In this document: positions 21,011 through 34,977 of the stretch, one piece after another
Layout: every line of letters starts with the position of its first letter
How positions within the stretch are numbered: the first letter of the stretch is position 1
Origin: Ridgeia piscesae
Taxonomy: Eukaryota > Annelida > Polychaeta > Sabellida > Siboglinidae
DNA: 64,000 bases
Assembly: GCA_025642075.2 (NCBI GenBank)
Contig: JAODUO010000417.1
Span: 62,001 to 126,000, forward strand
Reading direction: 5' to 3'
Notes under the pieces: model-generated
Databases searched by the model: none
The model's input: the letters and a program-made list of their open reading frames with translations, nothing else
What the model was told of the DNA's origin: nothing
Program-made: the position numbers and the translations under genes

Positions 21011-21205
21011 GACGGTAAGTCGGTCATGTATAATAAAGACAATACTGCCAAAGGTAACGCTCGGTTCAAAGGACATGCAATCGAGTTGATGGACGCAATC
21101 GCCATTGTAGCGAAGTTAAAAATCACCTTCTATGAAGTGAAACAGTATGGCCACAAAGATGCGAATGGAACGTGGGATGGAATGGTCAAGGAACTTATTG
21201 ATAAG
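21011..21205 (+). CDS. Channel-less ionotropic glutamate receptor-like protein, exon a (S1 half of ligand-binding domain)
   Basis: This 65-codon exon has an acceptor TTTTTTCTGCAG before 21011 and a donor AAG|GTGAGG after 21205, both phase 0. It encodes the S1 lobe core of an ionotropic glutamate receptor ligand-binding domain: SVMYNKDNTAKGNARFKGHA matches the VMY.K...GN.RFEGYC region, then IELMDAIAIVAKLKITFYEV and YGHKDANGTWDGMVKELIDK. The tyrosine of the KYGA motif (Tyr450 of GluA2) is kept. Exon b continues the domain without a gap (ELIDK|RANFTACSL, compare ELI..RADLAVAPL). The residues before it (the usual LRVTT.LE strand) and a signal peptide must lie in an upstream exon that I could not place. 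Closest known relatives by eye are AMPA/kainate-type receptors. Confidence 0.8.
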
Positions 21206-21336
21206 GTGAGGTGTAGATAATTATTAAAGAATAAGTGAAATGGTTCTTTAAATTTCTTTTATACTGCGCTTTCTGCGATCTTGTGACCTAGAAACATCGT
21301 ACTACTTTCGATGGGTTTTGTTAATATGATTAATAC

Positions 21337-21465
21337 GTGTGTGTGCGTGCGTGCGTGCGTGCGTGTCGTGCGTGCGTGCGTGCGTGCGTGCGTGCGTGCG
21401 TGGTGGCTTGTGTGTGTGTGCGTGGGTGCGTGCGTGCGTACATGCGTGTATGTGTGTGCTTATGA
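21337..21465. repeat. (GTGC)n-type microsatellite
   Basis: Imperfect GTGCGTGC units with TGTGTG interruptions. Low-complexity frames on both strands here are artefacts. Confidence 0.95.
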
Positions 21466-22489
21466 TCACTGTCAGAGATGACACTTCTGCCACGGGCGGA
21501 TTGATAATTGACGACGTCGCGGTTTGTTTATATCGCATTGAAAATTATGCGCGAGACTTGCATCAAGCGCTGCTAAAAATGTTGATAACGGTTAAATATA
21601 TGAAAAATGTGACATAATTACTGCGACATAACGTGTCCTAGAATAGCGGTTCCCAAAATGGGGTACGCATACGGCGAAGAGCACGCGAGGATTTTCCAAC
21701 GGGTACAAGACGGGTTAGCTGAACGTAAGGATCTCGTATGTAACTCGTGTTTGCGCCTTGCACCACCATAGACGAAGATTTCAAAGACAATAACACGGAA
21801 ACTAATTTCCTTTTTGGGGAGGGCAAGAACCGTCGGAGTACCATCACCATTTCGCCTCCCTAATGTTCGGCGTCTCGTGACATCCACTCCTCTCGCTCAG
21901 GACAGACTTCAGAAGACGGCGGGGGAAGGGCTTAAAAATAATTTGTCACTGCGGCGTCCACAATTTACCTTGTTGAACTGGAGGAGGGGGCACACCTTGA
22001 CTTGTTTTCAGATGCTACTGTGAGTGTGCGGATAATTAGTTTATAGGGGATATCGGCACATCAACGGCGGAGTCGGCGGCGGCGATATGGTGAGAAAATC
22101 GACAAAACAACACGTCTGTTTTGTTATATTGAACTCCCCAACGTCTCCAGGAAAAGTTAGGGCCATCAGGCGGCAGTGGTATCCAACCTCCCTACCTACC
22201 TAGCGAGATTGTGATGTACCAGGTGCCCCTGAACACGTAATTATATATGAAGGAGTACCTGGATGGTCCATCGCGCTATTGTGTTGAGACTAACACATGT
22301 TGATAGAGAACAAAACATCACTCTTCAAAACATGTGATCTTCATTATTTGTCCCAGACAATGAGATGAAACAGAATATACGCATTGCTGATACAAATGTT
22401 ATCAAGTAGACACCATCGCGTTATAAACATGAACGCATTCAAATTTAACGGTATCACCAATTGAGTATACTGAATGAAAAAGACGGTTA

Positions 22490-32071: not shown

Positions 32072-32326
32072 CGGGCAAACTTCACCGCGTGTTCGTTGGC
32101 AAATACCCCGGTGCGAGCTAAGGTCGTGGATTACACACAACCTATTGACCCGGTAGGCTATACGTTTATTGTAAAGAAGACTCCCACCAACGAAGCGTAC
32201 ACCAAAACAAGTGAACTCGCTGTAGCGAAAGGTATGCATTTCGTCTTTAGACGAGATGACATAATGGATAGACATTTCAAGGCAAGCAACGTCGTGGAGG
32301 AAAAATGGATATATACGATCGCTAAG
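32072..32326 (+). CDS. Channel-less ionotropic glutamate receptor-like protein, exon b (S1-to-S2 junction without pore)
   Basis: This 85-codon exon has acceptor CACCACAG before 32072 and donor AAG|GTTAGT after 32326, both phase 0. RANFTACSLANTPVRAKVVD and YTQPIDPVGYTFIVKK match the end of receptor S1 (RADLA.APLTIT.VRE..DFS.PF...G). The Arg that binds the ligand alpha-carboxylate (Arg485 of GluA2) is conserved, while the Pro/Thr positions are Ser/Ala. After only a short TPTNEAYTK linker the frame goes straight into an S2-like start (SELAVAKGMHFVF, then DRHFKASNVVEEKWIYTI). In every canonical receptor about 150 residues with M1, the M2 pore loop and M3 (SYTANLAAF) lie at this point; here they cannot be encoded because the exon is continuous. 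The Ser-Thr pair of S2 that contacts glutamate is not conserved. Confidence 0.8.
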
Positions 32327-34584
32327 GTTAGTGGTAGTCAAAATGTGTTAAACAAATTAGGCCCGGTCAATCCAAAGTATAAGCATTGCTCATACAGTCA
32401 ATCAGTTTGTTGCATAACAGGGTGATATGCTAAGAGGGAGGCACAGCATATTTAGAGTTGTGGGGTGAACATTAGTCGCAAGTGTTTATTCTTTGTAGCA
32501 CACACACACACACACACACACACACACACACACACACACACACACACACACACACACACACACACACACACACACACACACACACACACACACACACACA
32601 CACACACACACACACACACACACACACACACACACACACACACACACACACACACACACACACACACACACACACACACACACACACACACACACACACA
32701 CACACACACACACACACACACACACACACACACACACACACACACACACACACACACACACACACACACACACACACACACACACACACACACACACACA
32801 CACACACACACACACACACACACACACACACACACACACACACACACACACACACACACACACACACACACACACACACACACACACACACACACACACA
32901 CACACACACACACACACACACACACACACACACACACACACACACACACACACACACACACACACACACACACACACACACACACACACACACACACACA
33001 CACACACACACACACACACACACACACACACACACACACACACACACACACACACACACACACACACACACACACACACACACACACACACACACACACA
33101 CACACACACACACACACACACACACACACACACACACACACACACACACACACACACACACACACACACACACACACACACACACACACACACACACACA
33201 CACACACACACACACAAAACACACACACACACACACACACACACACGACCTGGCTGCACTGAATGGAAGGCATACATGCAGAATTATAATTGTATTGATT
33301 GCATTTCATTTAAAATTATTATATTATTTTTAATATATTGCATCTATGTGAACCAACTAGTGACTGAAATCTTTAAACATACAACTTTAAAATGTTTTTA
33401 TTGATAACGGATGATGTCTGGTATGTACGTATATTCGTGTTATTATTGTAGGTTTTTTTATTAGCTACATGTATGGTTATCCGTCATTTTACTGGGTCCA
33501 TACGAGTTGGTCTCCCAATAGATAGTTGACCATATTTAATAAAGTATGCTCAGGATTTTAACATTAATTCCGGTGGTGTATACAATGTTAATATGTATTA
33601 TTGAACAATTTTGAAATAATTATATAATCTCTTTCTTTCACATAGACCATCGAAAATCTTGTATATTCTCTTTGAAATTCAGTGCGTTTACCATCAGCAT
33701 TTTGGTACAACTTGGGTACGAATTAAGTCATCATCATCGTCAGCGGTGCCTCGAAACGAGGATGACGTCTTCCAATAGTTGGTCGTGTGTCCTGAGGCGA
33801 CGCACGAGCCCAATTATTGATCTGTATATCTTGCTGCTGTGTGGGCAGGAGGTGTGAGATGGAAGGGAGACGTGAAAATGTTGAGACATCTGCCTCTCCT
33901 TTCTCCTATGCCGTTTCTCCGCTTCGTGAAGTAGATAGTCAGGGCGCACGGGGGTCGAAGTGGACACCTCGTGCTATTTTTTGTTGCCCTGTCGTTTTCT
34001 AAACTTCAAACCTTCCTTAATAATATCCCAGAGGGCAACCATCTCAAATCAGTGTACGTCACTCCGAAAAGTGCCTTTACATTCAGGCCTATGTGGTCTC
34101 TTAATGGCCGCGTTGCATATATTTTTCTTTCCACATTTTTACAGTAAATGTATAACAACAAACTTAAGAGTAGTATCAAATAATCAGGAATGACGAGAAC
34201 TAATATTTATGGCAATATCTTAATGATACGTTTATTTTTTAGGAAGTCAGGTATAAAACATTGAACAATATGTCGAAAAATCTATTCGGTTACGCAGTTG
34301 ACATTACACAACAGGAGTTATAATTATCTTAATATGTAATTAATATACTTACGTAATATATCAAAATGATGTACATTCATTTACCTATTGAATGTTGCAA
34401 AGCACTAGTAAACTAGTACTACATTATACGCAATCACGAGCCGAACAAGGTTTTTACGTAACATAGCAGCTTACGCTTGGCATATTCCATTTCTAGCTGG
34501 ATTTCTGGTTGCAGCTTATTTTGTGTATCCATAATATATGTGGTGTCATATACCAGCTATATAGCGTGTGCTCCATGTCCTTAG
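32327..34584 (+). other. Intron 2 of the receptor-like gene
   Basis: A 2.26-kb intron between exons b and c. It begins with the CA microsatellite; the remaining 33250-34580 is AT-rich with no recognised feature except small open frames around 33670-34000 that I cannot support. Confidence 0.65.
32499..33246. repeat. (CA)n microsatellite, about 750 bp
   Basis: About 370 CA dinucleotides, with one visible interruption (AAAAC) near 33216. Long His/Thr and Cys/Val frames across it are artefacts. It is intronic, 172 bases downstream of exon b. Confidence 0.98.
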
Positions 34585-34977
34585 AGAGAAAATACGTTCA
34601 TGGATGATCTCAACGAAGCCATTCGGAGAGTCCGAGATTCTGATGGCCACCTCGCCGTAGTCACTAACAAAGCTACTGCCATGTTTCATGTTGGAACACC
34701 ACCATGCGTGCTCATGACAATCGGTACAACCGCAAAAAGCAAGAAATTATCTGGGCTTATTGTTCTAAAGGGTAATCCAATGCTCCGTCGGCTCAATAAA
34801 GCGATCAACGCGCTAAAATTGAATGGCCAGTTCGATGAACTCTTCAAGAAATGGTATGAAGGACCCTGCCACAGGGAAAGCAAGACCCCCAGCAGCGCTA
34901 CGCCTGGCGCTGCGCCTGGCGCTGCAGTTATCCCCGTCGTTGTGGCCTACCTTCTTTCGTTGACCGCTTTTTATTAG
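34585..34977 (+). CDS. Channel-less ionotropic glutamate receptor-like protein, terminal exon c (S2 and hydrophobic C-terminal tail)
   Basis: The acceptor is TGTCCTTAG before 34585, phase 0; the exon has 130 codons and ends at TAG 34975-34977. Residues align gap-free with receptor S2: LNEAIRRVRDSDGHLAVVTN, then PPCVLMTIG, KKLSGLIVLKGNPMLRRLNK and GQFDELFKKWYEGPC. The two cysteines that form the conserved S2 disulfide are present (PPC and EGPC). The Glu that binds the ligand amino group (Glu705 of GluA2) is Asn here. After the domain come a Ser/Thr/Ala/Gly/Pro linker (SKTPSSATPGAAPGAA) and 18 hydrophobic residues (VIPVVVAYLLSLTAFY) at the very C-terminus with no cytoplasmic tail, as in a GPI-attachment signal. 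A bare transmembrane anchor in the M4 position is the alternative. Confidence 0.8.
   Translation, partial: RENTFMDDLNEAIRRVRDSDGHLAVVTNKATAMFHVGTPPCVLMTIGTTAKSKKLSGLIVLKGNPMLRRLNKAINALKLNGQFDELFKKWYEGPCHRESKTPSSATPGAAPGAAVIPVVVAYLLSLTAFY

What the first reader, a model, noticed from the sequence alone, without database searches (positions are those of the whole stretch)
21011..34977. Glutamate-receptor-like ligand-binding domain encoded without its ion channel
Exons 21011-21205, 32072-32326 and 34585-34977 join in phase 0 and together encode receptor S1 and S2. Exon 32072-32326 passes from the end of S1 (VRAKVVDYTQP) to the start of S2 (SELAVAKG) through a linker of about ten residues, exactly where M1, the pore loop and M3 lie in all canonical receptors. 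The exon is one open frame with consensus splice sites, so the pore is absent rather than hidden in an intron. The result resembles the artificial S1-S2 constructs used for crystallography. A natural binding-only member of this family is, to my knowledge, not a described class.
Basis: partly seen in the sequence, partly recalled or inferred. Interest (0 to 1): 0.88.

Follow-up and report, generated by a model that had tools for sequence, protein, structure and literature searches.

The report
Glutamate-receptor binding domain lacking its channel
An unnamed, likely animal genome carries a gene predicted to encode a glutamate-receptor ligand-binding clamshell; in one exon its two halves are joined directly with no ion channel between them, and it belongs to a small gene family whose products are predicted to sit on the cell surface by a lipid anchor and would bind small molecules without passing current.

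Summary
Exons 21011-21205, 32072-32326 and 34585-34977 are open, in phase 0, with AG/GT borders. Spliced, 280 aa match crystallised iGluR S1S2 constructs (7-241, E 6.9e-24); Pfam finds PF10613 but not the channel family PF00060. The S1-S2 join lies inside one exon, so no channel can hide there. It is not a lone oddity: seven loci of this genome, the window's included, carry such a join in one exon, and proteins of the same layout occur in unnamed outside data. Not shown: expression, the 5' exon(s), ligand, species. In the open-licence papers searched I found no such class; two surveys filter such sequences out and a third defines the family by the channel. New variant of a known kind, comparable to acetylcholine-binding protein.

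The parts
21011..21205 (+). Exon B: first part of S1 (DGKSVMY...MVKELIDK), phase 0 at both ends
   Evidence: Open frame, TTTTTTCTGCAG acceptor and GTGAGG donor; PF10613 match E 3.9e-8 genome-wide
32072..32326 (+). Exon C: rest of S1, direct S1-S2 join, start of S2
   Evidence: Open frame, CACCACAG acceptor, GTTAGT donor; acceptor at the same codon boundary in 4 true iGluR genes examined; same GTTAGT donor in C423, C1704, C970a, C970b
32114..32116 (+). Codon for the Arg equivalent to GluA2 R485 (alpha-carboxylate binder; numbering and role recalled)
   Evidence: Alignment, R in 5 of 5 genome rows
32180..32206 (+). Short S1-S2 linker (TPTNEAYTK) in the place of M1-pore-M3
   Evidence: Alignment with solved S1S2 chains and with channel-bearing relatives
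34585..34977 (+). Exon D: rest of S2, conserved disulfide Cys pair, C-terminal tail, TAG stop
   Evidence: Open frame with TTAG acceptor; aligned to S2 of GluA/GluK chains
34867..34869 (+). Second Cys of the S2 disulfide (GluA2 C773 equivalent; numbering recalled), last residue before the tail
   Evidence: Found at this place in 5 of 5 genome rows that reach a stop
34870..34974 (+). 35-residue tail: small/polar stretch then 17 hydrophobic residues (34924-34974) ending at the stop; likely GPI-anchor signal
   Evidence: No charge in last 15 residues, best 12-residue hydropathy 2.62; no dedicated GPI predictor was run
35127..35132 (+). AATAAA, possible polyadenylation signal 150 nt after the stop
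   Evidence: Read from sequence

Best explanation
The gene, if spliced as predicted, encodes an ionotropic-glutamate-receptor ligand-binding clamshell whose two halves are joined directly in one exon without a channel, and its product is likely a cell-surface binding protein held by a GPI anchor. It belongs to a gene family of this genome that probably arose when an iGluR-type gene lost its M1-pore-M3 part. The domain would be exported by a signal peptide (its exon was not found), folded with the conserved S2 disulfide, and its C-terminal hydrophobic tail exchanged for a lipid anchor. Ligand would close the clamshell on the retained arginine; without attached helices this cannot gate current, so the protein would act by capturing small acidic or amino-acid-like molecules, or by presenting them to neighbouring channels or transporters. 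I favour chemosensory capture over transmitter buffering because the pocket has lost most glutamate contacts and one paralog pair shows exons more divergent than introns. Shown: sequence, exon layout, the S1-S2 join in one exon, homology, family. Inferred: splicing in vivo, export, anchor, origin by loss, ligand, role.
For: Match to S1S2 crystal constructs without the channel; PF10613 present, PF00060 absent. Same direct join in a single exon at C423, C1704, C970a, C33, C301 and C970b: seven loci with the window, on six contigs. None of the 32 listed genomic PF00060 places lies on those six contigs. An intron acceptor at the same codon boundary, just before the S1b (K/E/R)AD motif, in four true iGluR genes (C1028, C19a, C19b, C103). 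Tails of 30-39 residues ending in a hydrophobic run in four of the five genome rows that reach a stop; the fifth, C301, is weaker. Outside proteins of the same layout with N-terminal leader and similar tail; one of them, P0025, is predicted at mean pLDDT 82.9 with the iGluR S1S2 fold. R485 equivalent 5 of 5 and first S2 Cys 5 of 5 genome rows. C970a/b: exon B 46/195 against introns 41/749, p 2e-12; exon C 66/258 against introns 111/1964, p 1e-21, computed with 67/258.
Against: No RNA evidence for the window gene. Exons are 10.9 and 2.3 kb apart across long TTC and CA arrays, and no signal-peptide exon was found in about 41 kb upstream (21 kb). GPI signal judged only by composition. E705 equivalent kept in 1 of 5, T480 and T655 in 0 of 5 genome rows, so the ligand is unknown. 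The C564 pair shows no exon excess (p 0.34) and C1807/C1888 only a weak one (p 0.014); in C970 exon C dS (0.418) exceeds dN (0.293), so positive selection is not proven. The tree leaves the number of channel losses open. In one search all 14 rows with a named species carry PF00060: no named species with a channel-less member was found. Four of the five models of P0025 were less confident (pLDDT 70-73).
Confidence: 0.68

Rival explanations
1. Transmitter buffer: a glutamate-side counterpart of acetylcholine-binding protein that soaks up glutamate or related amino acids near synapses.
For: Outside GPI-like rows keep Y450, T480, R485, T655 and E705 equivalents in 11 of 11 aligned (of about 16 found); secreted rows keep Y450, R485, S654 and E705 in 9 of 9 aligned and have no hydrophobic tail. 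AChBP is a soluble homologue of a receptor binding domain (abstract of PMC3423370).
Against: The genome's own copies keep E705 in 1 of 5 and T480 in 0 of 5, so the window protein is a poor candidate for glutamate itself.
Confidence: 0.2
2. Accessory subunit: the domain pairs with the binding domains of true iGluRs or chemosensory IRs and tunes them.
For: Same fold as receptor domains known to pair (pairing recalled); true iGluR genes exist in the genome.
Against: Conservation of the dimer interface was not tested; no partner is known.
Confidence: 0.12
3. Decaying remnant or assembly artefact: a former receptor gene that lost its channel part and is on its way out.
For: Missing 5' exon, long repeat-filled introns, long end branch (1.75).
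Against: No stop or frameshift in 280 codons, seven loci with the same join, conserved Arg and Cys, the same layout in outside data.
Confidence: 0.06
4. Horizontally acquired bacterial solute-binding protein (SBP family 3) rather than a reduced iGluR.
For: PF00497 also scores (61.3 bits); several outside homologues carry the source name 'ABC-type amino acid transport substrate-binding protein'.
Against: PF10613 scores higher (72 bits); the PDB rows shown for the window protein and the Foldseek rows shown for P0025 are all glutamate receptors; intron border shared with iGluR genes.
Confidence: 0.03

Closest known systems
Animal AMPA/kainate-type iGluRs (PF10613 + PF00060)
   Same: S1 and S2 sequence, S2 cysteines, key Arg, intron border before S1b
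   Different: No M1, pore loop, M3; no M4 with cytoplasmic tail; ends in a short hydrophobic tail
Chemosensory Ionotropic Receptors (IRs)
   Same: Divergent pocket that loses glutamate contacts (as described for IRs in PMC2924276, passages read)
   Different: IRs are characterised there by PF10613 plus PF00060 and are channels
Vertebrate kainate-binding proteins
   Same: Short iGluR relatives (identification recalled; rows P0052, P0055, P0056 look like them)
   Different: They keep PF00060 and a long tail with M4 after the last Cys
Acetylcholine-binding protein (AChBP)
   Same: Natural channel-less homologue of a receptor ligand-binding domain (abstract)
   Different: nAChR-type fold, an unrelated family (recalled); soluble rather than GPI-like
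Engineered GluA2/GluK S1S2 crystallisation constructs
   Same: Nearly the same S1-linker-S2 layout
   Different: Artificial; no natural C-terminal anchor signal
Bacterial SBP family 3 (PF00497)
   Same: Related fold, stand-alone binding role
   Different: Lower score than PF10613; introns present

Membership tests
Ionotropic glutamate receptor (as a channel) | S1/S2 ligand-binding domain | tested here: met
   PF10613 72 bits; PDB S1S2 match over 7-241
Ionotropic glutamate receptor (as a channel) | M1-pore-M3 channel segment (PF00060) between S1 and S2 | tested here: not met
   Direct join in exon C; no PF00060 in the product and none listed on contig C417
Ionotropic glutamate receptor (as a channel) | Amino-terminal domain PF01094 | tested here: inconclusive
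   Genome search for PF01094 did not complete; tblastn with three proteins that carry part of it gave only chance-level hits outside S1 in the contig stretch
Chemosensory IR | PF10613 with PF00060 | tested here: not met
   PF00060 absent
Chemosensory IR | Loss of some or all glutamate-contact residues | tested here: met
   Window row keeps Y450 and R485 equivalents, not T480, S654, T655 or E705
Bacterial-type SBP family 3 | PF00497 as best family | tested here: not met
   61.3 bits, below PF10613 at 72
GPI-anchored protein | C-terminal small-residue stretch plus hydrophobic run to the stop | tested here: met
   Composition; no trained predictor was run
GPI-anchored protein | N-terminal signal peptide | tested here: inconclusive
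   Exon not found for the window gene; leader seen by eye in complete outside homologues
GPI-anchored protein | Lipid anchor on the mature protein | not testable with these tools
   Needs expression and PI-PLC

The most novel reading that the evidence does not exclude
Animals possess an undescribed class of natural, channel-free iGluR ligand-binding domains, GPI-anchored in some lineages and freely secreted in others, possibly invented several times: the glutamate-receptor counterpart of acetylcholine-binding protein, diversified in this animal into a rapidly changing surface capture family for chemical sensing.
Probability: 0.5. Interest if true: 0.86.

Novelty: new variant of a known kind. 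Interest (0 to 1): 0.74.

Why it matters
iGluRs are thought of as a bacterial-type binding protein into which a channel was inserted (recalled). Here the insertion appears to be undone, leaving a stand-alone binding protein much like the engineered S1S2 constructs. Surveys that require channel motifs or membrane helices discard such genes (PMC6307864, PMC12226733) or define the family by the channel (PMC2924276), so the class may be widespread yet unseen. It offers ready-made domains for ligand discovery and a natural test of what iGluR binding domains do without gating.

Tried and rejected
First exon: scans for a leader exon joining exon B in phase 0 gave no convincing candidate in the window or 20 kb upstream (window part alone); a partial one was seen only for C33 (...YRGRILTVTTIL).

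Bacterial transfer and artefact were considered and set aside (see rivals). C103 has S1 and an M4-like match but its channel stretch reads N, so I count it as a true receptor and drew nothing from its missing PF00060. I looked no further into that stretch.

Tree: 38 rows, chosen by me out of the proteins found (22 channel-less and 11 channel rows from outside, 5 genome rows); P0061, P0067, P0075, P0083 and C970a were dropped as incomplete. One clade for all channel-less rows: AU p 0.076, and 0.225 without P0059 and P0064; for GPI-like rows p 0.32; for the five genome rows p 0.37. The number of losses is undecided. A C773 column was misplaced by a motif that did not match and is ignored; that Cys is taken. 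P0041's tail was missed by the pattern.

A first alignment around C970 exon C gave about 45-54% flank mismatch because of an insertion; I used the local alignments, which pick similar stretches and so may understate intron divergence. The same holds.

Channel control: P0054, a channel row, also lacks E705 and the first S2 Cys, so contact loss is not confined to channel-less rows.

Species not identified. Rfam found nothing in the window at gathering score. Exons C and D of C1807 were not found in 5 kb.
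Full report
What is there. The three exons are open frames with consensus borders, all in phase 0, and give 280 residues before a TAG stop at 34975-34977. Pfam finds the iGluR S1 family PF10613 (72 bits, cut-off 30) and the bacterial-type PF00497 (61.3 bits), but not the channel family PF00060. Against all solved structures 363 distinct sequences match at E 0.001 or better; the 60 shown are all glutamate receptors, most of them S1S2 constructs, the best being GluA1 5ict (query 7-241, E 6.9e-24). 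The S1-S2 junction is within exon C, so the absence of M1-pore-M3 at that place does not depend on gene prediction. The whole-genome search lists 32 PF00060 places, none on contig C417 (47 candidates scored), while PF10613 finds exon B of the window at E 3.9e-8.

It is a family. Of the contigs with PF10613 matches, eleven have no listed PF00060 match, one of them (C103) because its channel stretch reads N. Reading the others as far as I could fetch them, I found S1-S2 joined inside one exon at C423, C1704 and C970a, C33 and C301, and C970b: seven loci with the window. C423 and C1704 share the three-exon layout and group with the window gene (99/92); C33 and C301 carry the rest of S1 and all of S2 in one exon and group together (100/100). 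C564, C1807, C1888 and C2041 were seen only as PF10613 matches and are not counted. Identities of C423 and C1704 to the window protein are 33 and 26%.

Descent. Four true iGluR genes of this genome (C1028, C19a, C19b, C103) have an intron acceptor at the same codon boundary, exactly before the (K/E)AD motif, as the channel-less genes do (I did not fix the donors of the true receptors). In C1028, C19a and C19b S1b then runs on into M1 in the same open frame; in the channel-less genes it runs into S2. This favours loss of the channel part from an iGluR-type gene over a bacterial acquisition. It is inference: the tree does not fix the number of losses and has no bacterial rows.

Relatives elsewhere. 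A profile of three paralogs found one protein, P0001, among the 7999 candidates scored. Searching with it gave 31 proteins, itself included, of which 26 have no PF00060 in the precomputed column, several of them fragments. Searching with P0024 and P0025 gave 64, of which 27 have none, again with fragments (7997 candidates scored). All 14 rows with a named species carry PF00060; the channel-less rows name no species. The complete channel-less ones have an N-terminal hydrophobic leader by eye and a direct S1-S2 join, and fall mainly into two kinds: one with a hydrophobic C-terminal tail, one without. P0002 adds an FN3 domain. Most lie on contigs of about 1-4 kb without intron, which suggests transcripts; P0038 opens with what looks like intron sequence just before S1b, which suggests genomic DNA. 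The secreted kind is sister to P0009, a channel-bearing protein (94/96), which hints at a separate loss there.

Tail. After the last domain Cys the window has 35 residues, a Ser/Ala/Gly/Pro-rich stretch followed by 17 hydrophobic residues up to the stop, without charge in the last 15. C423, C1704 and C33 have similar tails of 30, 30 and 39 residues; C301 (46 residues, hydropathy 1.72) is less clear. Fifteen outside GPI-like rows have 24-34 residues there. Nine channel-bearing controls have 47-107, with M4 and a polar end. A GPI signal is the natural reading; a very short membrane anchor is not excluded, more so for outside rows ending in KRL.

Pocket. Against GluA2 numbering (recalled), R485 is kept in 5 of 5 genome rows, Y450 in 3 of 5 (the window's among them), P478 in 2 of 5, E705 and S654 in 1 of 5 (C1704), T480 and T655 in 0 of 5. 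In outside GPI-like rows Y450, T480, R485, T655 and E705 are kept in 11 of 11 aligned; in secreted rows Y450, R485, S654 and E705 in 9 of 9, T480 in 8 of 9, T655 in 4 of 9. Channel controls keep E705 in 10 of 11. So outside relatives look able to bind an amino acid; the window copy has changed ligand or lost tight binding, as IRs are described to have done.

Divergence. For the C970 pair exon B differs at 46 of 195 sites and its introns at 41 of 749 (p 2e-12); exon C at 66 of 258 and introns at 111 of 1964 (p 1e-21, computed with 67). C1807/C1888: 17 of 207 against 87 of 2063 (p 0.014), with dN 0.106 and dS 0.012. C564: 33 of 195 against 61 of 436 (p 0.34; dN 0.176, dS 0.258). dN exceeds dS in C970 exon B (0.312, 0.174) but not in exon C (0.293, 0.418). 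Diversifying selection, exchange of exon segments, or homogenised introns could each explain this. It argues against plain decay.

Literature. Searches listed no paper whose title or shown abstract describes a natural channel-less animal iGluR binding protein; two searches listed only 15 of 101 and 12 of 370 papers, and only open-licence PMC papers are held. [quoted passage not shown] PMC2924276 characterises the family by PF10613 plus PF00060; PMC12226733 excluded sequences with one or no predicted membrane helix. PMC10642201 and PMC12837371 report a channel domain in all their receptors; PMC4890853 says 25 of its 26 snail sequences span at least two membrane domains, which leaves one that I did not follow up (passages). 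PMC6543705 was read in passages and adds nothing. AChBP (abstract of PMC3423370) is the nearest precedent in another receptor superfamily.

Verdict. Observation and core interpretation stand. The most likely working is surface capture of small ligands by a GPI-anchored clamshell; sequence, homology and family are well supported, anchor and function are inferred.

Noticed in passing
49651-50877 (+): Intronless 408-aa open frame with KHA, BTB_2 and pentapeptide repeats, a KCTD9-like protein with no internal stop (the name KCTD9 is recalled).
   Followed up: partly
27746-30496: 2.75 kb TTC array (about 918 copies) inside the intron between exons B and C.
   Followed up: no
32499-33246: 748-base CA array in the intron between exons C and D.
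   Followed up: no
46151-46953: 54-base tandem repeat, 14.8 copies, open in several frames (Thr/Pro/Ala-rich product in one + frame); no Pfam match.
   Followed up: no
17346-19912 (-) and 37280-37969 (-): Non-LTR retrotransposon pieces: RVT_1 and endonuclease matches.
   Followed up: no
40541-42150 (-): Retroelement remains: RNase H-like match and an integrase match below its cut-off.
   Followed up: no
62660-62896 (+): Carbon-nitrogen hydrolase (nitrilase-type) exon-like match, 44.2 bits.
   Followed up: no
L032 and L033 (C103): AMPA/kainate-like gene whose channel stretch reads N in this assembly.
   Followed up: partly
L035-L038, L050 (C970 pair): Exons about four times more divergent than their introns between neighbouring paralogs.
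   Followed up: partly
P0064, P0065: Another PF10613 type without PF00060, with a long charged C-terminal extension, from unnamed sources.
   Followed up: no
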